Source of the DNA: Opeltia flavorubescens
Taxonomy: Eukaryota; Ascomycota; Lecanoromycetes; Teloschistales; Teloschistaceae
Direction of reading: 5' to 3'
DNA length: 64,000 nt
Assembly (NCBI GenBank): GCA_000442125.1
Contig: KE546966.1
Coordinates: 1,599,471-1,663,470, forward strand
Below the pieces are notes generated by a model. That model made no database searches, had not been told where the DNA came from, and saw only the letters and a program-made list of their open reading frames with translations. The translations under genes and the position numbers were made by a program. How positions within the stretch are numbered: position 1 is the stretch's first letter; every line of letters begins with the position of its first letter. Of this stretch, positions 30,604-62,500 are shown piece by piece.

Positions 30604-30860
30604 TGTAAAAAGGATGCAATAGTAGGGAAACTGTATAGAAGTATAGGTAATAGTCTAGCGTTCTACTATCATATATACGGAGCTATATATAGAGAATATA
30701 TATATATTAATATCTAGANAGCTATAAATATTANNGGGAATTNCNNTAACTATATANGCCCCCTTTCCTACTAGTATAATATAGCGATATAACGTCTCGG
30801 CCGAAACTATATAACGGCTCTGCGATATTATAATAAGCTAGACTATTATTAACTATAATA
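30604..30860 (-). repeat. 3' LTR of K2
   Basis: A 257-bp LTR that starts TGTAAAAAGGATGC on the + strand and ends at the RIP-altered TGTAACA. Several ambiguous bases (30719-30757) lie in it. The polypurine tract complement is just to its right (about 30863-30872). Confidence 0.92.
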
Positions 30861-33800: not shown

Positions 33801-36800
33801 CGTTCTTTTATAGCCGAAGTAACCCGTTATAAAATTATTATAATTACGCTTAAGGGCCTTTTATCTAATTACGCTAAAAGGTAAATACTATTTTTTATTA
33901 TAATAGAGTAATTCTTAGTTTTAATACTATTTATAACTTTTATTAAACTATTTTAATATTATATAAACGCTTAATAAATTATTAGGTGATCTTTTTTTTA
34001 AAAATACTAATTTTCTAACTATATTATTAAGCTTTTAAAACCCTTCTATAATATAGTAAAAGGATAATAGGGATACGTTGTACGTATTCTCTAAAGCTAT
34101 TTCCTTAACAACTTATCGCCTTAATTATAGGTTTTTAAGACTATTAGAATTATTTAAAAAAATCAATTAAATATCGCTATATATAGTAGTATTAGGTTTA
34201 TAAAAAGCCTTTAACTTTTTATATACTCTAGAACTATAAGTCTTTACTAGTATCTACCTCTTTTTTATTTTAAAAGACTTCTCTTTAACTATAAAAAGCG
34301 GAATTAACGCCTTTATATCGCTCTTTAAAGTATCTTTATCTCTCTTTTCTACTAATATTAAAGGCATCCCCTAACTATAAAAAGATATAGACGACGTAAT
34401 ATTATCGCGCTCCCCTATATAGATATTAAATACGCGACCCTTTATTAGGAATCTATACTTAAAAGTATTTTTTAAAAGCTCGCTCTTTTTATTAAAAATA
34501 TTAGTTTTTACTTCCTTTACTATATAACGTGTTACTACCGCTTCCTAGATATTTCTAATAGCGGTTTCGATATTCTTAAATAACTTTTAAAGGTTCTCTT
34601 AAATATTTTTAGAATTAATTAATAATATCTTATTATTAAAACAGCTTTTTTTATTATTTTTTAACAACTTTCTAATATTATTTAAAATCTCTTATAAGCT
34701 TTCGGATTTATTTCTATCTTATTCTATAAAAGTCCTAAATAGGTAGCGCTAAATCCCTAAAGAATTTATAATCGGTTTTATACTTTTTCTAAAATTCTTT
34801 TAAAACTCCCTAGAGTATAAAGTTAAATAAATATACTTTTAATTTAGAGTATTAAAAGCGGTATAAATTTTAAATACTTTATAATCGCTTCTTTATAATA
34901 TTATATTAGTAGGGTTTAGCTTNCCTAGCCTATACTTTAAATCTAGATCTAATCTAGCTAGCCGCTTCTACTATTTAGTATTTTTATAACTAAGCTCCTT
35001 TTTTATAAAAAAGTTATAAAAATTCGTATAATTAGTAATAACTTTTATTTTATAGAGGGCTTTTTTAATATAATATCGCTACTATTTATAGATATAAATA
35101 ATAACTAGTATTTCCGAATTTCCAATATTATAATTACGCTTAACTATCGTTTTCTTTTAGAATCAATAAACGATAAAGTACTAGCGGATTTATATACCGA
35201 TATTAAAAGGCTATAAAATAATTACTAAAATAGTATACTTTAAAGTATCTATTTTAATATAAATCTAAAATATATAATCGAATTATTATAGAATAAGCGT
35301 TATTATAAAACGTTTCTTTAACACTTTAAACGCGCCAACTACTTTTTTAATTAAAATAAATTTAATATTAAATTTCCCTTTATTACCGCCCTTTAATAAT
35401 AATATTAGCGGTAGTATTACCCGCGAGAATACTTTAATAAAATATCGGTAAAAGTTTACGAATTTAAGGAAATATTATACGTTATAATACGATTTCGGGA
35501 GGGATTAATTCTTTATATATTCGATATAGGACTCCTCTATTATAACATTACTAGGGCGAATAATAAACTTTATAAACCTAATTTTACGTATATTAAATAA
35601 ATACTTTTCTAATTTAATATATAGCCTATATTATAATAGCCTCGCGAGAACCTTTTATATATATATTAGGTACTCGGCTTTATTTTTAGAGTAGACTAAT
35701 AAATTATTTATATATACTATAATAAAAAGATTTAAAAAGTCTCTAAAAATATTATTAATATACGCTTAAAAAGTAGCTAGGATATTTACTAAGCTAAATA
35801 GTATAATATAATATTCGAAGTGGCTATAATAAGTACGGAACGCTATTTTCTATTTATCGCCCTTCCGGATTCTAATATAATAGTAGGTATTCCGGATATT
35901 TAGGCGGGTAAAAGTTATTATTTTATACAGCCTATTTAAAGCTTTTAATATTAGAGAAAAAAAGTACCGGTTTTTAATAATAACCTGGTTTAGCCCTTAG
36001 TAGTTAATATAAAGGCGAAGGCTACCGTCTTTTTTTTTTATAAATATAATTAGAACGCTAGCTTAGAATATTAAATAATAGATAAATCCTTTTATTAGAT
36101 TCTTATTAATATAGATCTATAAAACCTTTAATTTAGTAATTAAAAGATTATATAAGAGTTTAAACGGTAGATTACCCGTTATTTTAAAAATATAATTATT
36201 TATAAAGTATTTAAGGAGTTTATCGGCTTTTTAAAGATTATAAATCCTTTTTAGGTCGGTGTACTTTTTAAATAAAGTCGTTTCTTCAGCGCTATATAGA
36301 GCAATTATATTATTTTTATTATATAATTCTATATTAAAAAAGTATAATTATTTAAATCCTTCTACCTCTAATAAATATTCTAATTTTTTAGCCGGGATCA
36401 GTTTAATATTTATTCCCGCTAGGATAGCGCCGGGATCGCGCTATATCTATTATATACGTACCTAGTTAATATCTAGATTATATTAATATAACTATAGAAG
36501 GCTAAGTATAATATTAAAGGACTTAATATTCGCTTTAATATATTTATCTATTATTATTTTAGATTCCTTTTTCGAATTAGTAAAGTTGACCGGAAGTTTA
36601 TATTTTTAAAAATAAGTTAAACTCGTACCGTTTAATATTCTAACCAGCGCTTTAATATCGCGGCCGTTATATAACTTTAGCTCTTTTATACGGTATTATA
36701 ATATAAAATTCAGGCTTATATTATAATTAATAAGTATAGCTAATTTAACCTCCTGTTTTTTCTTTTAAATAATTATATTCGTAACTAGATAAAATATTTG

Positions 36801-38029
36801 TAACCTCGTTTATTAGTAACCTAGTAGTATAGAGGCAATATCTACTAGGTTTTATCTTTTTTCTCTTTATCTTTATAAAGGCAATCGGGTTTTTTATAGC
36901 CTTTTTTACTATATTTCTAGTAAGTAATCGTTATTAGTATATCGCTATCCTTATAGAATCCGCGGCTATTATCTAAACTATACTTTTAGAAACTATACTG
37001 GCCTTTATAATTTCTATAATTAGTTATTATTATATTCGCGCTAATTATCGATATAGTAATATTAAATAGACCTTATTTTTCTCGGCTACTTCTATAGCTT
37101 TTAAAACTTAATATTCTAATATTTATATTATTACAACTAGTACGCGCCCGATATTATAATTAAACCGATTTAATCTTAATTACCTAATCGATAATCCCCT
37201 AATATATTTTTAGAGGGTTAGGTATTTTAAATATTTCGTCGGCTATACTGCTTTAAAGGGCGTTTTTTAGGATATTTATCTAAATATAGTCCGGTAAGAA
37301 TTTTTTTATATAATTTTTAAAGTCTTTTAAATATTTAATAAATAAAAAAATATTTTATTTATTATAATATTTCGCGTTAAAGTATTATAACGTTATTTTA
37401 ATACCGCGGATAGTTTAAGGGTCGAGTTAATCTAATAGAAGTTTTAGTTATTCCTTTTAGATTATTTTAAACCTGGTATTTAGGTTCGCTTTTTTAATTC
37501 GGTTTTATATATTCGCTAGATAGCGATCGAGGTAGTTTATACTAAGTAGAATCCTTAAGGCTTCTGTTTTATATATAACCGGATAAGTTTTAAAGACGTG
37601 TTTATATTCGCGCTTAAATAATATATACTTTATATAGTTTTTACTTTTATATTAAATAAGGTTAAAAACTTTTAACTTCGACTTTTTATTTATTTTCTAC
37701 TTTTTAATGCGTTTAGGGTCGTTAATTAGGGTTTTAGAGGCTTACCATCGATATATAATAATAGATAGTTTTAGGAATCCTAGTTCCTTTTCGGCCTTTA
37801 ATATTTCTAACCTTTTTTACTAATAGGCTAGAGTTCGTTCTATCTTAAAAGCTCGAATTTTTATATCTAAAACGTCGCTAATAAGCTTATTTATATCGTT
37901 ATCTTATAATATAACCGTATTCGTTAGCGGTTATAATCTAATTATAGGCGTAGTATTACTATTACTATCTCACGCTATAGCTTCGTAATATAGTCGAACT
38001 GCCTTTTATAAAGAGTAGAAATATTAAGG

Positions 38030-38286
38030 TGTAAAAAAGATATAATAGTAGGGAAACTGTATAGAAGTATAGGTAATAGTCTAGCGTTCTACTATCGCAC
38101 ACACGGAGCTATATATAGAAAATATATATATATTAATATCTAGAGAGCTATAAATATTAAGGGGAATTCCCCTAACTATATAGGCCCCCTTTCCTNCTAG
38201 TATAATATAGCGATATAACGTCTCGGCCGAAGCTATACGACGGCTCTGCGATATTATAATAAGCTAGACTATTGCCAACTGTGATA
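38030..38286 (-). repeat. 5' LTR of K2
   Basis: A 257-bp LTR that starts TGTAAAAAAGATATAATAG and ends GCCAACTGTGATA on the + strand. It is better preserved than its partner (CACACACGGAGC, AACGTCTCGGCCGAAGC) and has one N at 38196. Confidence 0.93.
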
Positions 38287-39267
38287 TATATTTATAAAAG
38301 AAGTCTAGACTTATACCGTTCCTTAATATAAAAATCGTTTAATAACCGGGTAATTTAAGTTAGTATAGCTTTTATCGCTATTTATTCTATAAATTAGAGC
38401 GAGTATTTATAGATTTTTATTAAAATAATAAGTAATTTCTGTAATAATATTATTATAATTTTCAAAAATAAAGACTTTTAAATCTATATTTAAAAGCTAG
38501 CTATAAATTTTATCTAGAATAATTTAAACTTTTATTTTTACCTTTTAAATTCGCTAAAAAACTTATAATAGTTTAAAAAACTTATAAATATTACTAAATT
38601 TATTAATATATTTTAATAACGAAATTATATTTTTTTTAATATTAAATCTAGCCTGTTTTATTTAATAAAATTAGAAAATAGTATTATATTACTATTAAAT
38701 ATAATAGGAATCTAATTATAATAATAATAGGGTAGACCTATAAATAATAATAATCCGCTATAATAATAGTAAGCTTTTTTAAATAAATAACTATTTATAA
38801 ACGCCCGTCTAGCTTAATTATTAAGATTTTTTATATAGAATTTTTAGAATTAACTAATTATTATACTAGTAAATCTAATATTTATATTAATTATTATTAA
38901 ATCGTAATAGAGGGCTTATATTATTAATTTATTCTAATTTAATAGTAATAAATAGTTTATAGAATTTATAAAATTATATAATATTTATTATAATATATAT
39001 ATATTTATATAATATATAAAAGTTAAATATAAAATAATAAATATATTATTAGTATATTATAATCTAGATTTTTATTTATAAAATAAAATAATTATATAGT
39101 TTATTATTATAATTAGTAAACCTATTTATAAATTATTATAATTAAATAAAAATATTAAATTATAGTATATATTTTATAAAAACAATTTCGGCGAGCTACC
39201 GTTTACTATACTAGTGTAGCTAAAATAGATATAATATACTATTAATAATATATAGGTTTAAAAAAAC

Positions 39268-39398
39268 TGTTGAAATCACGTGTATAGAAAGCTTGCTTGA
39301 TTGTTCTAAAGGACGAAAGCCCTAGCTATATACACGGTTTTCGTCCGAAGTGGCTGGGGTCACGTGACGTCAGGATTGATCTGCACACGCATTTTGAC
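39268..39398. mobile_element. 131-bp GC-rich micro-insertion with short inverted ends (MITE-like)
   Basis: This interrupts A3 where A1 is continuous (equivalent to about 2280-2290). The ends TGTTGAAAT and ATTTTGACA are imperfect inverted repeats (TGTTGAAAT against TGTCAAAAT), and GTGTA/GTGTG follow close inside. It contains the self-complementary pairs GGACGAAA with TTTTCGTCC, and CGTGTATAG with CTATATACACG. The flanks are A-rich (AAAAAC and AAAAATC), a possible short target duplication. It keeps normal GC content and CpG sites while the host element around it is saturated with RIP changes. No coding potential. Confidence 0.8.
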
Positions 39399-42300
39399 AA
39401 AAATCTTTTAAAATATTTTAATAATACTATTATTAAAATAAAAAATATAAAAATAATATCTATTAAAAGTACTTAAATAATAATTAATATTAAATATTTT
39501 AATATTTAGCTATAAATATTAATTTCGGATAAAACTATAATAATTATTATTAAAACTTTTTATAAGTTCCTTTAAAATAAAAAAAATAATTAGTTTAATA
39601 TTTATAGTAATAATAAAAACTATAAAATATTAAAATTAAACCTTTTATAAAAGAATAAAGATAAATAATATAAAAGAATAATAATATACTAGCCGTTATA
39701 AAATAACTTCTTTTATATATTTAAATATTTATCTATATACCTAAACTATATATAAAAAAATTAATCGATTATATTTCCTATTATATATTAATACCGGAAT
39801 TTTTTTATAATTTTATAAGCTCTATTAATTAAAAGCGAGCTTAATATATAGAATAATCAATATACTACTTAAAATAATTATTAATAGTTTTTATTTAAAG
39901 TTATTACTCTACTATAATAGAATTAAACTAGAAATTAATAAAATTATAGCTATTAATAATATAATAATAGCTGGAATCTATATAAAAGCCGTTAGCTAAA
40001 TAACTAGCGAGCCTATTTTTAATAGAAAGTTTCTAGTAAATAAATTCTAAATAATAAAATAGAATAATATTAAAATTATAAAAATAGCTTTTATTAATTA
40101 ACGGACTTTATTAAAGCTGAATATATAGTAGATAAAAAATCTAATAAAATTTTATATACTACCGCTAAAGATCCTAATTAGTATAATAATATTATAGAAT
40201 TTTATTTTGTTTACTACCGCTAAAGATCCTAATTAGTATAATAATATAATAGAATTTTATTTTATTATAATAAAGCGTATAGAATTTAAATTAATTAAAA
40301 TATATTAATATAATAAATATAACGAAGGTTTAAATTAAATAACGTTTTATATTAGTCCCTACGCTTTAATTATAATAAAAAACTACTTCTAGCTATAGCT
40401 ACTATAGTTAAGCTATTTATTAAGCTAAATATTCTATTAATATTAGTATAAACTTATTTAAAACTAGTTAAACTATTTAAAAATATATTAAAAATTATTA
40501 AACTAGAGATTATTAAATAACTACCGCTATAAAAACTTTAATTAATTTATTCGACTATAAAAAATACGCTAATAATAGGCTTTATTTTTTAAAGATACCG
40601 TTATATAATTATAGATATTCGCTTATAATTAAACGCTAAAAATTATAGCTTTTATTAAAATATAGATTATACAATAAGTTTAATTAACTAAAAATTTCTA
40701 CTAAAATAGCTGCCGTATATTATAATTTAGAAGATACTAGCTTTTATAATTATTAAAAGTATTAATAAAAAGTAATATAATATTATTAAATTTATAATTA
40801 TTAAAATTTTTATATTTAATTAAAAAGCTATAAAGTTTACTATTATTACGCGCGAGTTTTATTTAATAAACGATTTAAATGTTAATATATTTACTAGTAT
40901 TAATATTATAAAATTTTAAAATATTAATATATATTTATCTATAAATATAATAACTATTAGTTTTTATAATAATAAATATTAGTTTTTATAATAATATAAT
41001 AGTATTAATTACTATTAATATTAAAGGTATTAGAATAAATATTATTATCTATAGTATTTAACGTTTTATAGTATTATTATACGCTAGTAAAATCATTAAA
41101 ATTACTGGTCTATATTAAAAATTTCTAAACCCTTTATAAAATCGTAACTTTATTTATAAGCTAAAAACTTTAAATATTTTTATTAATTATATATATATTA
41201 TAAATTATATATTTAAATAAGTTTATATTTAAAGTATATTATAATTTTTTATTTAATTAACTATAAAAGTTTAATTAGGTATTATTTATAAATATAAAGC
41301 TAATAAATACTATTAAATTACCTTAAAAAACTATAAACTAGCTATTAAAATATTAAAATAAAAGTCTGGATAGTTTTTAAAAAATTTTAAATACTATATA
41401 ATAATTATTATAATAGCTATTATAGCTCTAAATACCGTTATTATACTTTTTTTTAATTTTAACTACCGGACGAAAATAGTATATATTATAAAAGTAATAA
41501 TTTTTAAAATATAAATAAAACAAGCTATTTTAATTATTTTAGTTAAATATTATCTATATTTATAATAAAATACTAGTAACATAATTAATATACTGGAATT
41601 AGAGTATATAAATATTTTATTAATAGAAAGTTAGGAATAGATTTATAAGCCCGGATAAATCTATATATATTCTATTAGTACCTATAATAAAGAGATTATT
41701 AATAAAGTTTTTAATAAACTTTATAAATAAAATCGGATAGAAGAAATTATTATAACTATTTTATTTTTATTTTTTTATTTTATAGTATAAAAAAACATCG
41801 ATTAAAATTTTAAAAATTATATTATTATTAATATTCGAGTATATAATAAAATTATAATATTAAATATCTATTTAACTCTATTATAAACGGAAACTCTAGT
41901 ATAAATCTATAGCGCTAAAATCTTTTTTATAATAGATTTTATAAACTTCTTCTATTAATAGTAAATTAACTAGCAATACTACTATTATTTAATAATAATT
42001 CTATATTAAAGATAAAAAACGTTTAAAATACCGGTAATAGGTTATTAAAACTTACTAGCTTATATATAATAGATAATAAATAGAATTTTACGCCTATTTT
42101 ATTCTTTTTATAAAATTTATATTAATAATATTATAGTATTTTCTTCTTTAATAAAAGAATATATAAAGTATTTTAATTAGATTTTTAATATATTTAATAC
42201 TATAAATCTATATTTATTATTTATAAAATTATTTATTAATTATATATCTATATATTTTCTAAACTAAAAGATTAATATCTTTAGGCTTATTATTATAAAA

Positions 42301-43532
42301 AATAAGCTAGAAATAATTTTAAAATTTTTATTTTTATATATACTCTAATAATTTAAAAAATATTTTAACTTAATAAACTACTTTTAGTAGTATATTAATA
42401 ATAATACAGCTATTATTAAACTATTCTAAAAATATAAAATTTATATAAACCGCGATATTATTATTAAAACTAACGTTTATAAAAAAACGGCTATTTAAAA
42501 TCTACTAATAGTATTTATATTTAAAGAGTTTAATATATTCTATTATCTATAAAAGCTTTTTTTATTATTATTAATTTTAGTTTACTTTAATAAAAGCTTA
42601 GTACTATATATAGATTTAGACGTTAATAAAAAATTTAATTTTATAATTTATATTTATTATAATTTAAACGAGGTTATTTATAAAATAAATAAAAAACCTA
42701 AATAGAAATTTAAGCGATCGATTCTATTTTTTAGCCGTTTACTATTAGACGCTAAAATATACTATTAATTTATAAAATAAAAGGTTATAAATATTATTTT
42801 AATAGTAAAAAAAATCTATTATATAATTAAAATAACTAAATATATTACTATTATTTATACAAATTATTCTACTATAATTAGTATTTTATACTAGACTAGT
42901 TTAAATATAGTATTTATAAAAAAATCTAATTTTTATTTAATATAAATTTCTAAATATTTTTAATATTTTAAATTTAATATCCACTATAAATTTAAAATTA
43001 TAAATACTACCTTTAAGCTCGCTTCTATTATTCTAATAGTATACGAAATTGTTGCTAATAGGAGTATATTATATATCGCATTTAAGCAGACCGTATTTTT
43101 GAATTATCTATATATATATTATAAGTAAATAGTTCGAAGATATAATTATTTAAAACAGTATTATATTAAATTTAAATAAANTATTAATATTTNTANCNCG
43201 NAATATTNAGCTTNTAANAACTTTTATTTAATATACTACTAACGATATAATACTAGATATTCTAGATTAAAATTTCGCCTTTATAAATTGTATATAAATA
43301 TTATATAAAGTATTATTATTAGTAATATTAAATTAATAGGTAATCACGTAGAGTTATACTTATCCTATTATATTTCGGAAAAACCTCTTATTAAAAGGAT
43401 ATCAAAGACCTATTAATAATATTAGTTAGAAGGTATTATATAAACCTATAGATATTATATAATATCGTAAATAACTAGAATATAATATTTCTACTAAACT
43501 TTCCTATCGTATTAGTATAATAAATATAGCAC

Positions 43533-43745
43533 TTATTTTTATACTAAAGCCCGTATTATTATCGCAGTATCTATTACCTTTTATACTAAAGCCGATATTA
43601 TCGTCGCAATCCTTTTTAGTACCTATTATACTAAAACCTATATTATCGTTGTAATCCTATTTAGTACCTATTATATTAAAGCCTATATTATCGTTATAAT
43701 CTTTTTTAGTACCTATTATACTAAAACCTATTTTATTATTATAAA
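43533..43745 (+). repeat. 45-bp tandem repeat array in F
   Basis: About four and a half copies of a 45-bp unit with the core TATACTAAAGCC.ATATTATCG, each ending in TTTTTAGTAC or a variant. Forty-five is a multiple of three, so the array may lie in a former coding frame, but that cannot be shown. Copies differ mainly at C/T and G/A sites. Confidence 0.85.
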
Positions 43746-44760
43746 TATCGGCGTGTTCCGTAGTTTTTTTATACTATAGGGGTAGATACCTACTAACTCC
43801 TAGTTATAATTCGAACCTTAGGCGAAATTGTTCTATAGTATTATTATATAATAGTTTAGTATTATCGAGAAATAATTAGCAATTTATTCTATATCTAATC
43901 TAGGGCCTTATAGTATACCTACCTATTTTTCTACCGCTTCTTATCTATAACTTAATTCTATAGTTTATTCGTTATAACTGTAGGCTTATAGCTTTAATAT
44001 CTTTTAGGGCTTTAAAAGGGTAAAGAATATCTAGTTAGATTACTAAAAATTAGGATATATATATTCCAATATTAGCCTAGTATCTTTTTTAGAATTTAGA
44101 GAAATATACCGTTAATACTAGACTATTAAAATTCGTTTTTTAAATATATACGTAATCGTCGACGACTAGACTAGATTATAAAACTTTATTATTTAAATAT
44201 ATACGTGTTAGTATTTTATAATAGCGAATACTAGCTATAAAATTATACCTTTAATAAAAATTTTCTAATATTATTAATTCTATTCTAAAGTTTAATAGCT
44301 AGATATATAGATTAAAGAATATATATAGACTAAACCAATATTTAAAAGAAAAAAGATAGTATTAAACTATATATATACTATACCTCTTATTTTCCTACCC
44401 TATATAGTACGAATAGAACTTTATCTATAAATAAGCTAAATTATTATTATACTATTATTAAATAAAAAAAACCTTAAGAAATTATAAAAAACTATATAAA
44501 GAGAGAGAAAAAGTATAAAAAAGCTATAAGAGAGGGTATAAAAGAGTATTAGAGAAGCTATAAGAAATAAAAAAAAATTGGACTATTAAATAGAATAGTT
44601 CTAGAGTAGTATAAATAGTAATAAATAGCTATAAAGTTTGTATAAATATAATAGGTATTGAATAGATACTATAGGTATTAGATAAGTAATACTAGATACT
44701 TTAAAAAGAAAAAGAAAAGTTAACTAGCTAGAATATAAATTAAAGGCCTCGTTTTACTAT

Positions 44761-44779
44761 AAAAAAAAAAAAAAAAAAA
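44761..44779 (+). repeat. 19-A homopolymer tract in F
   Basis: Nineteen A residues are followed within a few bases by a second A-run. Together with 48218-48235 it is one of two long pure A-tracts in F. It could be slippage, or the tail of a retroposed fragment. Confidence 0.7.
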
Positions 44780-47700
44780 GTATAAAAAAAGGAAAAAAAC
44801 GAAAGCGCGTGTATAAACTTAGAATTTTTCGCTTTCTTAATACTTTTACTATTAATTAGCCTTTATTATATCTAGTATTTATTATATCCAGTTTATTATT
44901 TCGATACGCTCCTAGTAACGCGTTTAAAGCTTTTTTAACGCGTTAAAAATCGTGCTTTAACGCGAACTAAATATATATAGAATATTAAATAAAGGGGGTT
45001 AATAAGGGGATATATAGTATAGTATATTAATAAGACGCGAAGGACGCGTTTATACTTCCTTTAATATATAGAAACGCGTGTTTTAAACTTATCACAATTT
45101 ATAGTAATATATAAAAAGGGAGTGGTATTATAGATTTTCTGCTTATTAGGGCTTCTAAATAGTATACTATAGTGCCTCTCTTTTAATACTTAGGGGAAAA
45201 ATACTATATAGAGTGGTTTTTTAAATATAAGGCTATTAGTCGTAGGTGGGTATACTATAAATTTTTATATATACAGCCTATTATTTATTTAGATCTATTT
45301 AAACGACTTTAAAAATCGATATATATTAATTAAAAAATTAAACTTTACTAGTCGGATTTAAAAAGAAAATACTCTTATTTTACGTTTAATATATAATCTG
45401 GCTATATCTATAAAATACTTCTAGCTATTTGTATTTTATTGCTTATTCTTTTTATATCTAGGAGTAGTATATTAAAAGGTAATATTATACTATATAAAAT
45501 TAACGGTTTTAAAAATTATATAGATTAGATTCTTTATTAGCTTTAAATACTATTATAATAAAATATATCTGGTTTTAATATTAAGGATAAGGATAATAAA
45601 GCTATAGATAAAATATTTTAAAAGATATTTGTAGGTAGCGGATAAAAAGAAAGATAATAGGGGGAAAAAAGTATAAGATAAATAGGTAGTTAAAGATTTA
45701 AATCTTTATATATCTGGTATATATACCTTTAATATATAAACTACTATTTTTTTTTTACTAAATTAGAGGAAATTAAATTTTATTATAATATTTTCTATAT
45801 AAATTAAATATTATAATTGTAATATAATAAAAGAGAACTCCTTTTATACTTTAAAGAAACCGTTCTAGCCTTTTACTTTTAATATATATAAAGAATATAA
45901 TATCTTTTAACTCTAATAGTAGGTAAGCCTACGATATTTATAACTTTAGAAAACTTTTAGTATAATACATTTAATACTAGATTATAAAAATCGGCTGCTT
46001 TATTTAAAGCCTCGATTATAGTAACCTTTATAAAAAATATCCTCCGATAAGTAGTAAACTTATATAAAAATATCCTATTAATTCTTCCTAGATATCGTCT
46101 ATAAATAGTAATAAAATCCTTAATCTTAAAAGTTATACGATATTTTAATACCCTAGATATTTATAGTTAATATATTAAAAAGATAATAATATAAAATATA
46201 AATAATAGGTATCAGGATCTATATTAGAGGATAAAAAATAGTATTAGGAATAATACAGACTTACGGATTAATAAAGCTGAACTTATTATATTATTAAATA
46301 TAAGTTCAATATAGGATAATATTCGGTTTATAATAATCCTATTTATAGGTATTACGTAATATAATAAAAAAGAGACGATCTTCTATAACTAGTATAATAA
46401 ATATAGGCTATCCGAAAGTTTATTTAATAAAACTTACTTTAAAATATCTAATCGCTATTAAATATAAGTATTAAGGATTATCGACGGTAGTAATCTTAGA
46501 TTTATTACTATCTTTATTTTTAGTATTTAAGTTATATTTTAATTAGGGTAATAAACTTATAAAAAGCGATAGATATATACGGTAGATTAATAAAATATAT
46601 TATAATAAAATTAATTCGTTCTCTAGGTATAAACTAGCTAAGATAAACCGTAGGTATTACTAGAGGCTTTCTTTTTAAAGAAGCGGCTTAATAATATTAT
46701 ATTTATTAGTTTTTAATACGGTAAGTTTATATCCTTTTTAAAAGATTAGTAAAAATAGTATTAAAATAGTATAAAATAGGGGGAATCTATTTACCAGTAC
46801 TTATTTTTATTTATAAAAATAATACAGTTATTTAGCGTAATATATTCGCTTACGACGTCGGTAAAATAGAGTATAGTATAGATATTTAGCCTCGATTGTA
46901 TATTATAATATAAAAAAGCTTTTTTTATATAGTCTTTATCGACTATAAAAATTTCTATTAGCTAATTTATTTTAGAAAAACTAGCGTTTAATCTATTATT
47001 AGTAGTATTAATAGAAAACTTATTTTTAAAATCGATCGAATCTTATTAAAAGGGGATAATTAGGGCAATAAATCTTTAAAAACTTAGGCTTTCTTTATAA
47101 TAAAAGTTTAGTATAAATAATAATAATATATATTTATATAAGCGCTAAAAGGCTTTTCTATTTTATTTAAAATATTAATTTATCTTAATCCTATCTTTAA
47201 ATATTATTTAAAGCGTTAGAATAATTGTATTACTTTTTATAATATTTATATAGTATTAAACGATATAATTAACTAGATTTATCTTTAGATAATAAGCTAT
47301 AATAGCTTTAATAGTATTTAAATAAATAGGCTCGATAAATAAAGGTTTAAGCTATAGCCTTAAAAAAATAGGGTTAATAATTAACAGCCGGGTATATTCT
47401 TATATGCGATAGCTTCGAAGATAATAAAAAGGACTCTATAATATCGCCTACTAGATGGATAAATTAATCAACTTTTTAATATTCTATAAAATACCTAGAA
47501 TAATAAATAAATATTATTTATACCGGGAGGAAATTAAAAGCCTTTTAACGTTATATAATAAACTATTTAGGCCTTAAATATAAGAATAATATTAAATAAA
47601 AGCGTAAAAGATTGTTTTACTATACCGGTATATTTAGAATATATAGTATCTATAGGCCTGAACCGGATAAAATCTAGTAAAGGAGTAATATTGACTAACG

Positions 47701-48217
47701 GAGATTATTTGTTTTTTATACCTATTAAATATAATATTAGTATAATAATAGATTAAATAATCGGGAAAATACTTACCTAAACTATTAAAATATATATCGG
47801 CTTTTATCCTACTAACCTGGCCTAATATATTATTTTTAGCCTTTTTATATAGTAATCGATAATAAACTCTAGTATTAATATAGATATTAAATACTAAATT
47901 TCCTCTTTTTAACTTAGTAATAAAGCATTTTATATATCTATAATTAGCTAGAGGCGATATAAATACAGAATTTGCAGTTTATTAAAATATATTTGCTATA
48001 AAAGTAATAGTATAAATATAAATAAATATCTTCTAGCTATTTATATTTATACTAATACCTTTATCGAGTTATACTAGACCGGGTTATAACGTTTAAATAA
48101 TATTATAAAGGTTACTAGCATATAGTTTTAACGTTAAAAGGAAAATATTTACTTTTCTTTTACGTTCGCGTTAATCTAATACTATACTATAAGGAAATCA
48201 GTATATATACTATATAT

Positions 48218-48235
48218 AAAAAAAAAAAAAAAAAA
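48218..48235 (+). repeat. 18-A homopolymer tract in F
   Basis: Eighteen A residues are followed by GGGGC. No flanking duplication that would mark a retroposed insert was identified. Confidence 0.7.
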
Positions 48236-51200
48236 GGGGCTTATATAGTTATATATATATTTATAAGAAAACGGTATATATTTCTATATAGACTAAAAAT
48301 ATTAATAAAAGTTAATAATAGTATAAATAAATATTTTTTTTTAGAAATATATTATTCTAAATAAGCAGGTTTATAATATAATAATTTAAGCTCCCTTTTA
48401 AACGGGAATAAAAATTATAGGGGATTAAATTCTTTAGTACTAAAGATTATAGTATTTCGTATAATATATTTTACTTCGTATTTTATAGACGGAGAATCTA
48501 GATTCTTATAGCGATAATTAAAATAGACGTTATTAATTTGTTTAAAAATATATTCTAAATTAATATTATAGTATTCGTTTTTTATTAGGTAGAGTTTTTT
48601 AGTAATAATATTAGGATAAAACTATAGTTTTTTTATAGAAATCTTGAAAAAGGAAATTAGAAATAGCTTTTAAATATATAGTATAATACCTCTAGTAGCT
48701 TTTATAGTATAATCTTTTTTAATAGTAAACACCCGCCTAATATAATATTTATTACTAGATTAATATTTATATTTAAAATTAGAATATCTTAGGCTAATAA
48801 TATTAGAAGGAAATATTAGGGACCTATTTTTATACCTTACGAACTCCCTTAAATAGGATAGAATAGATATAGCCTAGGTATTAAAGTAGTAGATTTCTTT
48901 TAATTAGTCTACAAAATATAATATCCTAATATATATTTTTAACCTAAACTAAGCCGACGATAAAACCACGCGAAATAATTCTACTAAATTAAAAAAATAT
49001 ATATTATAACTTAGTGTCGGAGGTATATTAAAAGATATATTATATATTATTTAGTCTTTTTAAGCCTAAACCCGAGCTTTTTCTATAGTATTTATTATAA
49101 AAAGCTTTTCCCCTTTTAAGTCTATTTTCTACCGTTTTATAGGTAGTAATAGTAGCTACTATTTAATATATTTCTTAAAAATAGCTATTAATTTAGGTAA
49201 ATAGCGTAATAGTTTTATATTATCTTTTAATAGCTTAAAAACTTCCAATAAGCTTTAGTATTAATAGCGCGTAATTCCGGTAATATTATACTATATCCTA
49301 AAAATAAAGGTAAAAAATAATAGATATTATTTAGCACGCGTATAAGGAATTAGCTCGGAATTATTAGGGATAGTAGTAGTAGAGCTTTTATAGGTAGGGG
49401 GTATACCCTATAATATTTTAGATAGTACTATTAGTTATATATCTATTTTTTTATTAAAATCTAAGAACTCTACTTAAAATACCTTATTATCGTTAATAGC
49501 GTTATCTTAAGGAAATATATCTTTTTCGGTTTTAAAAAAATCTTCTACAGGATTAATTATATTATAGGAATCGTCGATATCGCCTAGTATTTAAAGGAAA
49601 GAATTATTATTAGGCGTGTTCTCTATAGCTCCGAGTATCTTGTTAATTATAGATATTACGCTTTATTAAAATTACGATTAGAAAGCGTAATTTTAGTACT
49701 AGCGATAATTTATAATAATACCTTTTTCTACTATATTACTAATAAGCTGTACTGATTTTTTAAATATACTAGCTAATTTATCGCTATATTACTCCTTAAA
49801 CTCTTCTCGGTTAAAATTCTGGATATTTTACTATAATAAATATAGAATATATTAGACTTAAAATAGCTAGGTATATAGTTTTTAAAATATAATTATAGGT
49901 AAACTTTAAGTTTATAACTTTAAGGCTAAGCTTTAATATTAATAACAGCCGCTAGAACTTAATTTATTACCTCTATCCCTCCTATATAACTAACGTTTAA
50001 GATTTCGTAATATATTCCTATAAGAATAATAAAAGCCTAAAAGCTTATAAAAAAAAGTTTAGAAGTATATAAAAGAACGTCTAAAAGCCTATAGGAGAAA
50101 ACCTAAAAGCTTATAGAAGCTAATAAGAGAGCTAAGAACGGTTTAGGAAGCCGAATAGATACTATTATTAAAGAGTCGAAATAGTTTAAAAAGCTTTAAG
50201 TAGCTTAAAACGTTTTATAAATTATTTAAACGTTTTTAATTTTATTTTAGATACTTTTTAAAGTATTTATATAGTATTTATATATCTAAAAAATTAAAAA
50301 AAGTACATATTTTAAAATTGAAATTTACTATATTAAAAGGTAAAACGGCTAAAATCTATAGTCTAATATAATTATTTTAGCTTTTATTTAGTATTTAATA
50401 TAGTTGTTTTAGCTTTTAATTAATATTTAATATAATCGCTTAAACTTTCTTCTTTAAATCGTTAGGCTTATAGATCGCGATATAACTAGACTCTAGATTT
50501 TAACTTAACGATAGCTTTTTAAAAATACGCCTATAAAGTTTTTAAATACTTTAAAGCTATATTTAAATATAAATAGATATTAAATAATTCTTTAGAAAAA
50601 ATGGTAGTAGTTAGAATAAAAAAGTTATTTAATAGTCTAAAATTAGTTTATACTTATAATAAGCTTTAATAAACTTTTAAAAAGCTGCTTATAGATATCT
50701 TAAAACACTATAATTAATATTTAAATATTATTAAATATTATTAGAAGACTTAGAAATAAAAAAAAAATAATTTAAAAATATTAAAAAAAAATAAAAATTA
50801 TATTATAGGTTTAAAAGATTTTTTATATTATATAACTAATAATACGGGGTTAATCGACTAAATTCCCTGTTTTCTCTAGTTTTTATCGCCCTCTATTATC
50901 TTTTTCTTCTATACTTTAATTTTTTATATATTTTATCTATTTACGTATAGTATAAATATATTTTTTATCCTACTAAGTAATAAGGCTTTATTTTTTTATT
51001 AGTTTTAAATATTTTAAGTCTTTTAATTTATCGCGCTATAGCGCGTACCTTTAAATCGTTATCGAAATTTTAAAATTAAGATGTATAACGACCTAAAAAA
51101 AAGAATATTAATAGATTTTTTATACTTTAAAAGCTAATTATATATTAGATATTAATATTAAATATTAGAAACGATCGCTAGGTTTTATTTAACGATAGCT

Positions 51201-54200
51201 AATTAAAGATATTCGAGATACTTTAATATTTTATTAATAACGAGGATAATAACGAGTTTATAGTTAGCTTATATAAGCGTAAATTTAAATCTAAATCTAA
51301 TACTAGTCTATTTAAAGTAACTTCTATAAAAAAAAATAATTTTAAGGTTCCTAAAATCCTATAAACCTACTATAATATTTCTTCTAGAGAGTCTTCGGTC
51401 GAAGATAAAAATTTTAAGAATCTTCTTTAGCTTAAGCGTATTCGCTATACTAAACCTTATAAGATTACTATAATATAAATATTATTATCTATTTAAAAGT
51501 AAGCTTTTAAATCTTTAAACTCTAATATTTATAAAGATATAAATTTTCTCCTCTATTACTATATTACGTACTAATCGATTTTTATAGTCTACCTCTATTA
51601 TTAATACTAGCCGTAGAAATAATATTATTATTTTATTAAAGGACGCTTATATTAATCCGTCTAGTAAATAAAATATAAATAGAAATAACTTTAATAATAC
51701 GCCGCCTAAATAAAAGCGTTTAGAGTTACCAAATAAAAATTTAAAATTTATAAATAATATTAAAGCTCGTTTTAAAGAGTTCTAGTTTAAATATTATATA
51801 TATTTTCTCTTATAATTCTACTTTAATAATATATAATAGATTATTATTTCTATTTAAAGCGATTAAATCCGCTATTAATATTAGAAATAAAAGTATTCGA
51901 TAAAATTAATTAGCTAGTATATAAATAATCAAAAGTATATATCTTTTATTAATATATAAATATAGTTTAAATATTTAAATATTCTATTTATATAATATTA
52001 ATAGTTAGGTAGATTAAAATTAATAAATATCTTAAGGCGGATTAGAAAAGCGGAGCTAATATTCTAAATTTTATAGATATCTATTATAATTTAGTTTAGA
52101 TAATAGTAAACTATTATTTAATATTATTATTTACCTATATATTTTCTTTTATAGATAAAGAAATTGATTTAATAAAAACTATCCGGCTTTTTAAAAAAGC
52201 GAATTTTTAATTCTAGAGTATATTATTATAAATAACCCGATATTATTTTTAGTATCTAATTATTATTATAAATATCTTCGTAAACTTTATAGCGAGGATA
52301 AAGCTTATAATAGACTAAAAAGCTAATTTTAAGCGTTAATATAAATATAAATTTAGTTGTTAGAAAGTCTTAAAGTATTTTAATATAATAGTTTAGTCTA
52401 AAAAATTTAAGTTTAATATTATAAGATTAGTTAAAAAAACTAAAAAGATTAATTAATAGAAGTTAGATACGGATAATATCCTAAATCCCGACTATAATAT
52501 AAACTAGGTATAGATTAGAAATATAAGTAATAACGATAACGATAATAATAATACTAATACTGTTACTACTAAGAAGGTATTAGTAGTAAGGATAAGTTCG
52601 TGATTTCTTTTTATTTAGGTAGTTACTATATTTAGCTTTAAATAGTATACTATTTAGTTCACGTTAATAACGAAAGGATAATAATAATAATATTATAATA
52701 TATATAGTATAGTATAGTAAATCCTAATAGTTTCCTTTAAAGGCTGATATATTACTTTATATCTAATTATATCTATAATACCCTATTTACTTTATCTACG
52801 CTATCTAGTTAGGTATTTTCTAATATATAAAGCTTCTTAGATTACGTTTTTATCTAACGTTAAAAGAATTTCTATTTAAAGCCTATATACTAGAAAAATA
52901 TTTTTTTTTATTTAGAAGATATTGGTTCGAGCGATAATTAGAGGCCTATTAAATATAATATCTACTAATATTCCGCTAATATTATACCAACATTCTAGTA
53001 ATATAAAGTCGGAAAAATATATAGTAAATATTCCTTTACGCCTTATTTTAACACGATAAAATAGCTATAAGAATAATAAATATATCTATAATTCTATTAT
53101 AATTTGCTTTAAGTAATACTTATAGCTCGATAAAAAGAGCTTTTCTTAAAAGTATATATACTATATAATATACGCGTTATACACGCGATAGATCGCGTAT
53201 AAATTCTTCGTGGCGTTTAGCGCAATTTTATTATATTATTAATATCAAGTGATTATATTAGTAGAGGCCCTTAAGGTATTTTAAATATATTATTCAAGTT
53301 TACTAGCTATAAATACCGTTTAAAAATAGACGAATTATTAGATATAGATACTTTTATAGTATATTATTTCCTAATAAATCTAGTAGAAATATTAGTTAAA
53401 TTCCGCTAATAATTAATCGATAAATATATTAAAAAAAGTTATTAGATTAAAGTTAAAGAATTTATTAAAATTAATATAAAGCTAAAAAATAATATTATAA
53501 AATTATTATATTATATTATTAATAGGCTACTTTATTTTAATAATAATAAATAAGGCCTATATTTAATAATACTTACGGATATAAAAAGAGAAGTATTCTA
53601 ACTAGTATATAATAAAATAGGCTGTTTTAGTTATATATATACGCACGAACGTTTAATAAAAGGCTTTTATATATATAATATATTAATAAAGCTATATAAA
53701 TTTATCCGCTATTACTCGTAGTATTAAATTAATTAAATATTTTACTACCGCTTATATAGAGCTCTATAGCTAGTATTTAGCCTAGTAAGACTATTTTATA
53801 CGCTTATTATCGATTTTATTTTTATTCTACCGAAATTATATAAAAAATATAATTATTATATATCGGTAATAAATAAATTTACTAAAGTAGTTACTTATAT
53901 ATCTAAAAAGACTATTTAAGGCGGTAAATAATAAGCTGAATAACTATTAGATAGACTAGTAAAGTTAAATCAGAGCGTATTATAGATAATAATTTCAGAT
54001 TATAGGAGAAAATTTGTTAGTTAATTATAATACTAGATATTTAAAATATTAAAAGTAGATTTATAATATTTTACCGTTTAAAACCTATAAACTAATAATA
54101 TATTAGAATAATTTAATTAAACTATTAAAATTATTATACGCTATTATATTACTATATTAGACAATTCTAGATTATAGCCTATTATTCTTTTATAGATATT

Positions 54201-54504
54201 AGCGGCTTTTAATAATTCTATAAACTATAATTTTATATTTAAAATATTTAAATAAATATTATTCGAATTTAAAATTTATAAAATACTAGATTTTTTATAT
54301 TTATTAGATTTTAAGTAAGCTATTTAATTAAAAGATACGCTAGGTTTTAAAACTTTTACCGACGCTCCCGTTAAAGAACTAGCTGCCTTTCTAGCTAGAA
54401 TATAGATAGCTTATTACTATAATCTAACTATTTTAAAAATTAATAAATTTATAAACGTATTTATAATACGGAATATTATAATATCGATAACTATAAAAGA
54501 GTAC

Positions 54505-54761
54505 TGTTACAGTTGGCAATGGTCTAGTTTATTATAATATTGTAGAGCCGTCGTATAGCTTCGGTTAAAACGTTATATCGCTATATTATATTAGTAGGAA
54601 AGAGGGCTTATATAATTAGAGGAATTCCCCCTAATATTTATAGCTCTCTAGATATTAATATATATATATTCTCTATATATAGCTCCGTGTATACGATAGT
54701 AGAACGCTAAACTATTACTTATACTTTTATACAGTTTCCCTGCTATTGTATTCTTTTTATA
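54505..54761 (+). repeat. Solo LTR of family K
   Basis: An isolated 257-bp K LTR, TGTTACAGTTGGCAATGG to TTCTTTTTATA, flanked by the TSD AGTAC at 54500-54504 and 54762-54766. It lies within the integrase region of A3, where A1 is continuous. The perfect TSD with no internal region shows a former K insertion reduced by recombination between its LTRs. Its first 25 bp are unmutated. Confidence 0.95.
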
Positions 54762-54838
54762 AGTACCGGCTTATATATATTAATATTAAAAATATTATTA
54801 CTTTTATTATAATAAAAATAAAAGAATATTATAATATA

Positions 54839-55214
54839 CTAGCATTGGGCCACCGTTCCACTGGGATTTTGCTGCTGGCAGCTGGCAGCTAGTAGGGCTA
54901 GGAGCCAGTTCCCAGCCAGCTTAATACGCCTAAAACTTNTATATANTATAANNCTACNAGTTTTNGTCCGATTTTAAGAATTTTTATACTATTAGAATAC
55001 GCTTATTAAACGCTTTAAACTAAGCTACTATATATACTATTATATACAAAACTAATAGAGTTATTAAGCTATAAAAAAACTAGCTGTTTTAGTGGTTGAA
55101 ACACGAAAACGTGCTAGGCCCGAAATATATCTATTTTTATTCGATACCAACCAATAAGGTTTATACTTCTTTCGGGTCGGGAAGCCGATAAAGGACGTTT
55201 TTTAATATATATAT
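54839..55214 (+). mobile_element. B3: short element, subfamily 2
   Basis: Begins CTAGCATTGGGCCACCG and ends GGACGTTTTTTAATATATATATA, interrupting A3 at the position of A1 about 7111-7116 (target TATAATATA). It shares with B1 the GGAGCCAGTTCCCAGCC segment and the GTTGAAACACG...AGGCCCGAAA centre. Six ambiguous bases lie at 54939-54965. It retains more GC than A3 around it. Non-coding. Confidence 0.87.
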
Positions 55215-55285
55215 AATACTATTAACTAGTTTATATTAAAATTAGCGATTTTATAAAGATATATTTATATTAAAGTTATAATATA

Positions 55286-55664
55286 CTAGTACTGGGCTAC
55301 CGTTCCAGTGGGATTTTGCTGCTGGCAGCTAGTAGTTGGTAGCTGGTAGGGCTGGCAACTGGTAGGGCTGCCAGCTAATATAGTACGGCTAAAACTTCTA
55401 TAGGCTATAACGCTACTAATTTTAGTCCAATTTTAAAAATTTTTATAATATTAAAATACGCTTATTAAGCGCTTTAAATTAAGCTACTATAGATTCTAGT
55501 ATATATAGTATTCGTAGAGCTATTTAACTATAAAAAAACTAGCTATTTTAATAATTAAGGGCGCTAATTAAAAACGTGTCTGCCTTTATTCGATATTAAC
55601 CGATAAAATTTATATTTATTTCGGGTCGGGAAGCTGATAAGGGACGTTTTCCAATATATATATA
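55286..55664 (+). mobile_element. B4: short element, subfamily 1
   Basis: Begins CTAGTACTGGGCTACCG and ends GGGACGTTTTCCAATATATATATA. It inserted in A3 at a TATAATATA target, only 71 bp after B3. It carries the subfamily 1 features GGTAGGGCTGGCAACTGG and AAGGGCGCTAA. It is more RIP-altered than B2. Non-coding. Confidence 0.87.
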
Positions 55665-56197
55665 ATTAGAGTTTATTTTTAAAAAAATTAAATAATAATT
55701 AGTAGATTTTTTAAAATAATTAAACGTATTAAACTATTAGCCTATTATTTAAAGCTGCTATTTATTATAAAAATTTATAATATATTATTAGTAGTATATT
55801 TAAAGCTTACTATTAATTTTTATAATAATCCCTACTAATACTATTATATACCTGTACTCCTAATCGTTATTAATAATAATAAAAAATTTAAAATCGAATA
55901 AATTTTTTATAAACGCTATATCTATAAAAATAAAGGTTTTTCTATTTAATACTTTATTTATTAGGTTAGTTATAAATTTAAAAATAATTAATAGATATTT
56001 AAATACCGTTTAAGTTATATTAAAGTATTAATAGAAGAGTATAAATACTATTTTAATTTAAAATCGGTTCTAAACTATAGTAAAGCCGCTAATAATACTA
56101 ATACTAATATTAAATAGTAGGAATAAGCTAAAAAACCGCTTATTAGCGAGGAAAAGCCTATTATTAGGGGCTAATAGTTTTATTCGTTACCGGTATC

Positions 56198-59145: not shown

Positions 59146-59200
59146 TAATTATAGAGTAAAAAAATATTAGAAGAATAATTACTATATAATAAATATATTA

Positions 59201-59577
59201 TATATATATTAGAAAACGTCCTTTATCGGCTTCCCGACCCGAAATAAGTATAAACCTTATCGGTTGGTATCGAATAAAGGCAGATATATTTCTAGTTAGC
59301 GCCCCTAATTATTAAAATAGCTGGTTTTTTTATAATTAAATAGCTCTACGAATACTATATATACTAGAATTTATAGTAGCTTAGTTTAAAGCGCTTAATA
59401 AGCGTATTCTAATACCGTAAAAATTTTTAAAATTAGACTAAAATTGGTGGCGCTATAGCACGTAGAAGTTTTAGCCGTACTACGTTGGCTGGCAGCCCTA
59501 CCAGTTGCCAGCCCTACCAGCTACCAGCTACCAGCTGCCAGCAGTAAAATCCCACTGGAACGGTGGCCTAGTGCTCG
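59201..59577 (-). mobile_element. B5: short element, subfamily 1
   Basis: On the + strand it runs from a TA tract and AGAAAACGTCCTTTATCGG to GGTGGCCTAGTGCTCG. The GC-rich end holds four CCAGCTACCAG-type repeats and two GCAGCCCTACCAG units. It carries the subfamily 1 centre (AGTTAGCGCCCCTAA). It lies between D2 and relic E and retains GC. Non-coding. Confidence 0.87.
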
Positions 59578-62500
59578 TATAAATATAATACAATTTTAGG
59601 CTATTTTTAACTAATAGAAATAAATTTTAATATTTACTAGCGAGATTAAAAATAAACTTATAAAAATACTTTTACTATTTATAAAGCGGTATTAAACTAG
59701 GTTAGTATTTATATTATAAAGAAATCTAATAAATTAATAATACTAATAATAAATAAAATAAATAATATAAAAACTATATATTTTTATTCATTAATATTTA
59801 ATCAAAAAATAGAAATAGCTATTTTAAAAATAATAAAATAGAGTATAATATAGGTTAAAGATTTTAAAATTCCGCCGGCCTTATAAAACTTAATAGAGTT
59901 CTTTTTAAAAAAATTTATTAATAGTTTAAATATATATAATTAAATAGAATATCCTAAAAATTTAAAGCTAGATAAATAATTAAAAACCGGCTTAATTTAT
60001 AATATATTACTAGATAAATTAGTAGTAATTTAAAATTACTTTACTAGTATATAAATCAAAAGCTAGATAAAACCTTCGAGTAGTTTAATTAAAATATTAG
60101 TACTATTTATTAAAAAAATAAATAGTAGTTTATAATTATATATAAATTATAAAAATTTTAATAAAATTATTATTAAAAGTAAATAATTTTTACTTCTATT
60201 ATTAAAAACCTTAAATAGGTTTATATATATAAGGTAATTTAATTAAAATTAAAATTAATAATATTTATTATTATATTTAAATTAAATAGAAAAATAAATA
60301 GAAAATTATATTTTAAACTCGCTATAAATAATATAAATATTAAGTGATACCATTTATCTTTATAAATACTTTTATTATATTCTAATTATATATTAATAAA
60401 GCGTTATAATTTTATTTAAATATTTTTTATATAATTTATTTAAATAATATACTAGTTTATTTTAAAAATAAAAAGAAGTACTAGAAATATATTTATATAA
60501 TTATTAAGGTTTTACTAGAGTATTCTTTATATATAAAACTATTAAAGTATATTTTTAATTATATCGAAATTATATTTTTAGGTTTTATAGTAGATTAATA
60601 TAAAATTTATATAGAGTTTTTAAAAATCGAAGTTATAAGCGAATAGCTAGTATTAGAAAATATAAAGGATATTCTAATATTTTTAAAATTTATAAAATTT
60701 TATAAGCGATTTATAAAAGGTTTTTTATAAATAACTATCCTTTTAATCGACTTAATACGAGGTATAAAAAAAAGATAGGCTAAATTTAAATTTATTTAGT
60801 TTAAAAAAGTATAAAAAGTTTTAAAAAAGCTATAAAGATTTTTTATTTTAACTTTTATTTTATAATATTATAATATAAATATTAAAATTAATATAAAAAC
60901 GAATATATTAAAGTATAAAATAGGGGGGATTTTTAATTAAAAACTAAAAGAGAATCTATATTAATATTTAATAGTATTCTTTAATTATAAATTTAAAGGT
61001 ATAGAATTCTATTAAAATAAATATAATAAAGAGTTTTATACTATAATATTAGGTTTTAAAAATTAATAATATTATTTATAAAAAGTTAAAAAGTTATTTA
61101 TATAATTATAAATTATAATAATTCTATAGACTTTATAATTATAAAAGAGTTTATTATAAAGTAAATATAATAAATAAAAAAACTAACTATATTTAATTTT
61201 TATATAAAGTCTTAAAAGGGTTTATTAAATCTAGCCGATATATTATTTAAAAGGTTTAATATTATAAAATTTAATATTAATAAAAATAAAAATAATAATT
61301 TTTTATCTATTTTATAAAATAAACTTTATAATAAAAACTACTAGTTTAAATTATAAAAAGAAAATAAAATATTTATAATAATTAAACTTAAAGTAGTTTT
61401 AGCGGTATAATTAGATAATATAATTATTATAAATATTTTTACTATTTATAAAGATAGAAAAAAATTTAAAAGAATTTATAAATTTTTAAATTTTATAAAT
61501 TTCTAACTTTTAATTTAATAGATTATTAAATAAAAATTTTTTTTTTAAATATATAATTATTTATAGCGAAGTAGCTTTTTAAACTTTAATAAAAGAATAT
61601 TTTTATTATAAAAGAGAAATAGCGTTAAAAATTTACTATTAATTAGAAAAAACTTTTAAAATAAAAAGTTAAAGAAGATAAACTATTTTAAAAAAATTTA
61701 ATAATTTATATATCTAATAATCTAGCGATAAAAAAAAATTTTTTATAAAAATTATAATAATTTTAGAACAGGTTGTTTTATAAAAAAAAAATAAAGAATT
61801 TAATTTATAAAAAATATTATTAGTTAAATATAATTAAAAAAAAAGAAAATTATTATAAAATATACTTTAATTATTAAAAAATATAAATTTATTATTATAG
61901 GCTTTATAACTAGTTAGAACTAATTTTATTAGAAGGTATAAAATTATTTTATACAGTAATAATAGACTTTATTACTAACTTATTATTTATAACTAACTTT
62001 TATATAGAAAGGACCTATAATTTAATTTTTATATTTACAAATAAGTTAGTTAAATATATAATCTATATTCCTACTATTAAAGATATTAATATAAAAAATT
62101 TATAGAACTATTATAATACGAATTTATTAAATATTATAAAGTTATATAAAAAATTATTAATAATAAAGAGTTATTTTTTATAAAAAAATTTTAAAGTATT
62201 TTTTATTATTATTTAAATATTAAAAGTAAATTTAATATTATATTTTAATTTTAAATTAATAGCTATATAGAGTATTAAAATTAAATTTTAAAATATTATT
62301 TTTAAATTTATTATAATTATAAATAAAATAATTAATTAAAATTATTACTTTTAGCGGAGTTTATTTATAAAAATAATAAATATATAAGTACTAATAAACT
62401 ATTAAATAAATCATTTAAATAATTTATTACTATTTTTGAAATTAAATTTAAAAATATTACTTTTAAAAAAAAATATTTTTAATATTTAAAAAAGTAAATT

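What the first reader, a model, noticed from the sequence alone, without database searches (positions are those of the whole stretch)
43010..53276. A 10.3-kb inverted-repeat element that fits no family I know
Its borders are clear because the A3 sequence resumes on each side. The ends are imperfect inverted repeats (CCTTTAAG / CCTTAAGG) flanked by TA, and there is no gypsy or LTR signal. It is far longer than the usual TA-targeting Tc1/mariner elements, and its decayed frames give no known transposase domain. It may be a large undescribed DNA transposon or a nested pair.
Basis: partly seen in the sequence, partly recalled or inferred. Interest (0 to 1): 0.75.

Follow-up and report, generated by a model that had tools for sequence, protein, structure and literature searches.

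The report
Mutation-riddled CACTA-like fungal DNA transposon
A 10.3-kb jumping gene that landed inside another mobile element, probably in a fungus, and was then riddled by the host's repeat-mutating defence; its remains look like a large cut-and-paste transposase, so it is most likely an ordinary kind of large DNA transposon rather than a new one.

Summary
The insertion is real and its borders are exact: two uninterrupted copies of the host element (A3, gypsy-like) in the same window show the empty site, where the two flanks of the insert abut. TA lies on both sides, but is weak as a target duplication (a 2-bp match has chance 0.13; the empty copies read GG and AA). The inverted ends are marginal (3.6% of 4000 random pairs score as well). 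The whole insert carries a RIP (repeat-induced point mutation) signature.

"No known transposase" does not hold. The motif layout is CACTA-like. Pfam recognises neither the insert nor the recalled text, so membership is not established. Copy number could not be tested: no genome is held. Most likely an ordinary RIP-killed large DNA transposon.

The parts
38287..43009 (+). left part of host A3 element, copy 3 (Ty3/gypsy-like), ending at the insertion point
   Evidence: aligns to 1289-5814 and to 23818-19288 (reverse) in pieces; RT_RNaseH E 0.11 and 0.13
53277..54508 (+). right part of host A3 element, copy 3
   Evidence: 53279-54506 aligns to 5817-7044 of copy 1
43008..43009 (.). TA at the left junction (2-bp target duplication, or the element's own end)
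   Evidence: junction alignment; both readings open
53277..53278 (.). TA at the right junction
   Evidence: junction alignment
43010..43018 (+). left terminal CCTTTAAGC, imperfect inverted repeat
   Evidence: anchored score 9; 3.6% of 4000 random pairs as good
53267..53276 (-). right terminal stretch ending in CCTTAAGG, imperfect inverted repeat
   Evidence: CCTTAAGG at 53269
43010..53276 (.). the 10,267-bp insert, RIP-mutated throughout
   Evidence: composite RIP index 1.20; 0.94-1.37 in the ten 1-kb pieces, 0.82 in the last 267 bp
48250..48318 (-). transposase piece 1 (region of the first catalytic D, which reads N here)
   Evidence: 32.3 bits to recalled family text
47823..48206 (-). transposase piece 2 (region of the second D, which reads N, and the CxxC, whose second C is kept)
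   Evidence: 64.7 bits
47522..47722 (-). transposase piece 3, in a frame not seen before the reference was typed
   Evidence: 43.9 bits; alone E 1.5e-9; best of 1000 shuffles 23.5
47310..47435 (-). transposase piece 4
   Evidence: 35.8 bits; best of 100 shuffles 22.7
46797..46892 (-). transposase piece 5
   Evidence: 32.7 bits; best of 100 shuffles 24.6
46627..46731 (-). transposase piece 6, frame not seen before typing
   Evidence: 23.9 bits, within shuffle range alone; supported only by order and strand
48251..49900 (-). upstream stretch with coding-like codon use, perhaps the same gene's N-terminal part
   Evidence: minus frame 0 best in 9 of 9 consecutive 450-bp windows (starts 48251-49451) of a codon model trained on the A3 and B pol frames
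50951..52600 (+). weak, patchy coding-like signal, possible second ORF, unidentified
   Evidence: plus frames best in 8 of 11 windows (starts 50951-52451), in two different frames, scores 0 to 8; the other 3 favour a minus frame; no Pfam match at E <= 10
43575..43736 (.). 45-bp tandem repeat, 3.6 copies

Best explanation
The insert is a large cut-and-paste (class II) DNA transposon of a RIP-competent fungus. It carried a big minus-strand gene for a CACTA-like transposase (two spaced aspartates, then a CxxC) plus other, unidentified sequence. Inferred: the transposase bound short terminal inverted repeats, excised the element and inserted it into a gypsy copy with a 2-bp staggered cut, or else its CA..TG ends were turned into TA..TA by RIP. 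Shown: the sequence carries the RIP signature throughout, with stops in the readable pieces and frame changes between them, so this copy is dead. Inferred: because RIP acts on repeats and is about as strong in the middle of the insert as near its edges, other copies exist or existed.
For: Empty site in two A3 copies. Six minus-strand pieces match the recalled family; for the first three, which lie in the order of the query, sum E is 2.6e-24, and 200 shuffles of the query reach at most 24.3 bits; against the reversed window the query reaches 19.2 bits. Piece 3 alone, frame unseen before typing: 43.9 bits against a best of 23.5 in 1000 shuffles. The recalled text has D to D 84 residues and CxxC 19 further on, against 80 residues and CXXC in the CACTA/Transposase_21 motifs of PMC1636069 (section 9 read) and C(2)C after the second D in PMC12730594 (passages and part 3 of 7). 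An independent codon model favours the minus strand just upstream. No LTR and no RT match, whereas LTR element B in like condition (GC 0.23) gives RVT_1 at 1.7e-7.
Against: The reference protein is from memory, typed after I had seen translations of four of the six pieces (one of the four only in part); no database record was at hand to confirm it. The recalled text has no Pfam match at E <= 10, no solved-structure match of weight (best E 0.088, an NADH dehydrogenase subunit) and no relative in viral contigs or genome contigs. Piece 6 is not above its shuffles. The last stretch (pieces 5 and 6) was recalled apart, so its place after the rest is my own ordering. The inverted ends and the TA duplication are near chance level. 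The pieces lie in three frames, so indels or introns must be assumed. The H(3-4)H motif and the last E were not examined. About 7 kb of the insert, outside 46.6-49.9 kb, is unexplained.
Confidence: 0.74

Rival explanations
1. Nested or composite insert: a CACTA-like transposon with one or more further elements inside it, which would explain its length and the unidentified left (43.0-46.6 kb) and right (49.9-53.3 kb) parts.
For: About 7 kb has no identified content; A-runs at about 44.76 and 48.22 kb; weak, patchy plus-strand coding signal at 50.95-52.6 kb.
Against: No internal LTR-sized pair or long inverted repeat; RIP index high along the whole insert; a CACTA-related element of 9.2 kb is on record (A. 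aegypti TRC, PMC1636069, passages).
Confidence: 0.13
2. Tc1/mariner-type (or other TA-targeting) element enlarged by captured DNA.
For: TA on both sides.
Against: The transposase reading is of another, much larger type; no Pfam match to short DDE transposases (power limited); the TA may be RIP-altered CA or TG.
Confidence: 0.05
3. Assembly artefact: the N zone at 43181-43218 joins unrelated contigs.
For: Eight single Ns in 38 bp.
Against: Both flanks of A3 copy 3 meet at the same point of the empty site, which a misjoin would restore only by chance.
Confidence: 0.03
4. Tyrosine-recombinase element of the Starship or Crypton kind.
For: Large element in a probable ascomycete.
Against: No DUF3435 match in Pfam (power limited), and a DDE-type reading instead.
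Confidence: 0.03

Closest known systems
CACTA / EnSpm and related transposons (the CMCT clade), including fungal EnSpm, Plavaka and ESTA (PMC12730594: abstract, passages and part 3 of 7 seen)
   Same: fungal cut-and-paste elements; C(2)C after the second D; 2-5 bp duplications, TA in ESTA; mostly 5'-CA..TG-3' ends, which RIP would turn into TA..TA as seen here
   Different: Pfam does not recognise the insert or the recalled text; ends read CC..GG inside the TA; the CACTA-type lineages in the passages I saw are from basidiomycetes
TRC elements (Transposon Related to CACTA; PMC1636069: passages and section 9 seen)
   Same: 2-bp direct repeats, termini beginning CC, up to 9.2 kb, D-D about 80 residues and CXXC
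   Different: termini known there only from three animals, and CCC; inverted repeats longer (10-54 bp); the fungal TRC-like proteins named there come from Rhizopus, Coprinopsis, Phanerochaete and Cryptococcus
hAT element of about 9.5 kb in Pseudocercospora fijiensis (PMC6710886: part 1 of 7 and passages seen)
   Same: similar size, RIP-mutated, in AT-rich blocks
   Different: 8-bp target duplication, 20-bp inverted repeats, hAT domain and captured histone H3; the 8-bp duplication and 20-bp repeats are not present here, the domains were not found by Pfam

Membership tests
CACTA/EnSpm-type (CMC) transposon | DDE transposase with two Ds about 80 residues apart and CxxC after the second | tested here: inconclusive
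   Recalled family text has D-D 84 and CxxC and matches the insert in six pieces; in this copy both D positions read N and the first C reads Y, the second C is kept; reference is from memory; H(3-4)H and last E not examined
CACTA/EnSpm-type (CMC) transposon | recognised by curated CACTA-type models in Pfam | tested here: not met
   0 matches in six frames of 9,990 of 10,267 bases at E <= 1, 0 in 10 pieces at E <= 10, 0 for the recalled text at E <= 10
CACTA/EnSpm-type (CMC) transposon | 5'-CA..TG-3' termini | tested here: inconclusive
   TACC..GGTA seen; compatible with RIP-altered CA..TG or with TA duplication plus CC..GG
CACTA/EnSpm-type (CMC) transposon | 2-5 bp target duplication | tested here: inconclusive
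   TA on both sides; chance 0.13; empty copies GG and AA
LTR retrotransposon | long terminal direct repeats | tested here: not met
   no direct repeat pair of LTR size within the insert
LTR retrotransposon | reverse transcriptase / RNase H | tested here: not met
   no match in the insert; controls: B RVT_1 1.7e-7, A3 copy 1 RT_RNaseH 2.4e-4, A3 copy 3 only 0.11-0.13
Tc1/mariner | TA target duplication | tested here: inconclusive
Tc1/mariner | short DDE/D transposase | tested here: inconclusive
   no Pfam match, limited power on RIP-mutated sequence
Helitron | 5'-TC start and CTRR-3' end (rule recalled) | tested here: not met
   ends read (TA)CCTTTAAG and CCTTAAGG(TA); read by eye on both strands
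Any repeat family | second copy with the same ends | not testable with these tools
   no genome held for the window; none in the window

The most novel reading that the evidence does not exclude
The element is a founding member of an unnamed ascomycete lineage of CACTA-like transposons, with CC..GG termini, TA target choice and a second, plus-strand gene, which Pfam does not yet cover.
Probability: 0.2. Interest if true: 0.4.

Novelty: new member of a known kind. Interest (0 to 1): 0.22.

Why it matters
It takes a supposed 'family-less' element off the list of oddities. It also shows that a null profile search on RIP-mutated DNA says little: the gypsy copy that carries the insert itself scores only E 0.11-0.13. 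If the lineage is unnamed, a study of many copies would fill a gap in fungal repeat libraries.

Tried and rejected
Pfam on six frames of 9,990 of the 10,267 bases with stops as X: nothing at E <= 1. Pfam on 10 chosen pieces at E <= 10: nothing. Solved-structure search of one piece: nothing at E <= 10. Motif scan in six frames: no Walker A; one F-x-D-D string (46105, minus frame 1), one K-Y-x-x-K-Y string (45630, minus frame 0) and seven basic strings, all judged chance. Subterminal shared words: not beyond chance. Relatives of the recalled text in viral contigs and genome contigs: none (14 and 88 pattern matches, none confirmed), as expected for a fungal gene. Papers: nine searches, eight with listings; three papers were seen in part, the rest as listings only. 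'GDMPQQ' is in no held paper, which says nothing about print at large. A DUF2004 match of ORF 47634-47978 (17.3 bits, cut-off 27) was rejected as chance; that ORF overlaps transposase piece 2 in its frame.

LTR, LINE (no tail or longer duplication seen at the borders), Helitron and Tc1/mariner readings were considered and put below the CACTA-like one for the reasons in the table.

Full report
What is there. The window is AT-rich repeat DNA. In the five elements or element parts measured beside the insert, and in the insert, TpA/ApT is 1.27-1.52 and (CA+TG)/(AC+GT) 0.13-0.26, the signature of repeat-induced point mutation (RIP). A3 is Ty3/gypsy-like: RT_RNaseH E 2.4e-4 and SH3_Tf2-1 E 7.9e-5 in copy 1, RT_RNaseH E 0.11 and 0.13 in copy 3.

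The insertion. Copy 3 aligns to copy 1 up to 43007/5814 and again from 53279/5817, and copy 2 runs through the same place without a break. The finding's coordinates, 43010-53276, are therefore right to the base, give or take the two TA pairs. As a check on method, the LTR element at 30604-38290 in the same copy has junctions that fit a 5-bp TATAT duplication, single in copy 1 (bases printed, read by eye). The eight Ns at 43181-43218 look like poor base calls; a misjoin there would not bring both flanks back to one target point.

The ends. Left: ATAAATAC-TA-CCTTTAAG; right: CCTTAAGG-TA-TTTTAAAT. By eye, copies 1 and 2 have GG and AA where the insert has TA. Two readings stand: a 2-bp TA duplication around CC..GG ends, which needs copy 3 to have differed from copies 1 and 2 before insertion; or element ends that were CA..TG and became TA..TA by RIP, with two target bases lost. 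A 2-bp match at a junction has a chance of 0.13. The inverted similarity of the ends is reached by 3.6% of 4000 random TA-anchored pairs, and no subterminal repeats exceed chance. So the ends alone do not identify the element.

Coding content. A codon model trained on the pol frames of A3 picked the pol frame of B in 21 of 26 windows, and one trained on B picked that of A3 copy 1 in 19 of 22. Trained on both and applied to the insert (69 windows), it favours minus frame 0 in the nine consecutive windows starting 48251-49451, more weakly minus frame 2 in the five starting 46601-47201, and in patches the plus strand at 50.95-52.6 kb (8 of 11 windows, two frames). Pfam finds nothing, but A3 copy 3, a known gypsy copy, only reaches E 0.11-0.13, so that silence is weak evidence; element B, at GC 0.23, does give RVT_1 at 1.7e-7, so the absence of RT in the insert (GC 0.21) has some weight.

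The transposase. Reading the frames I recognised, from memory, a family of large ascomycete transposon proteins and typed 275 residues of it. tblastn of this text against the whole window at E <= 10 lists three pieces, all in the insert: 48318-48250, 48206-47823 and 47722-47522 on the minus strand, in order, sum E 2.6e-24, best piece 64.7 bits, best of 200 shuffles 24.3. With shorter words, the last 44 residues of the text add 47435-47310 (35.8 bits; best of 100 shuffles 22.7), and a further recalled stretch of 69 residues adds 46892-46797 (32.7; best of 100 shuffles 24.6) and 46731-46627 (23.9, not significant alone); other matches listed in that call reach 18.9 bits at most. The risk that I echoed what I had seen is real for four of the six pieces. 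Piece 47722-47522 lies in a frame not printed before; alone it scores 43.9 bits, E 1.5e-9, best of 1000 shuffles 23.5; the 275-residue query against the reversed window reaches 19.2 bits. The first 19 codons of the second piece (48150-48206) had not been printed in translation either. The six pieces hold 16 stops in 327 codons and lie in three frames, as expected for a gene hit by RIP and by indels, or interrupted by introns. Both aspartate positions read N and the first cysteine of the CxxC reads Y (alignment), so this copy is broken.

What it works like. In the recalled text the two aspartates are 84 residues apart and CxxC follows 19 residues after the second. PMC1636069 (section 9) gives about 80 residues and a CXXC for CACTA-related transposases, and 2-bp direct repeats with CCC termini for animal TRC elements up to 9.2 kb (passages). 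[quoted passage not shown] I did not examine H(3-4)H or the last E in the insert. The insert fits this picture, but Pfam does not recognise even the undamaged recalled text, so I claim 'works like a CACTA-type transposon', not proven membership.

Copies. RIP mutates repeats; the index is high in all ten 1-kb pieces of the insert, 0.94-1.37, including the middle, 5 kb from either border. That suggests the insert was itself repeated in the genome (inference; spread of RIP from the flanks is not excluded). The finding's own key test, other copies with the same ends, could not be run: no genome is held, the window has no second copy, and the prokaryote and virus collections hold no relative of the recalled text.

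Verdict. A real, exactly bounded, RIP-killed large DNA transposon, most likely of a known general kind; what is left open is its exact lineage, its true termini and whether something else is nested in it.

Noticed in passing
12397-12785, 24016-24396, 54830-55220, 55280-55666, 59197-59581: At least five copies of a 380-390 bp repeat (CTAGCACTGGGCCACCG...) with GC 0.33-0.47 and (CA+TG)/(AC+GT) of 0.59-1.0, far less RIP-marked than the elements around it; two stand in tandem inside A3 copy 3. Its length just under the roughly 400-bp RIP threshold (PMC6710886, part 1 seen) may be why it is spared.
   Followed up: partly
30604-38290: A 7.7-kb LTR element (B) inserted in A3 copy 3, with about 260-bp LTRs (90% alike), RVT_1 on the minus strand and junctions that fit a TATAT duplication (by eye); a solo LTR of the same family in reverse lies at about 54509-54760.
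   Followed up: partly
43539-43744: 45-bp tandem repeat near the left end of the insert; the minus frame reads as a 15-residue repeat with few stops.
   Followed up: no
60000-64000: GC of only 0.105 with a steady GC skew of about 0.24, the lowest GC in the window.
   Followed up: no
43181-43218, 30719-30757, 54939-54965: Clusters of single Ns, perhaps unresolved base calls between repeat copies.
   Followed up: no
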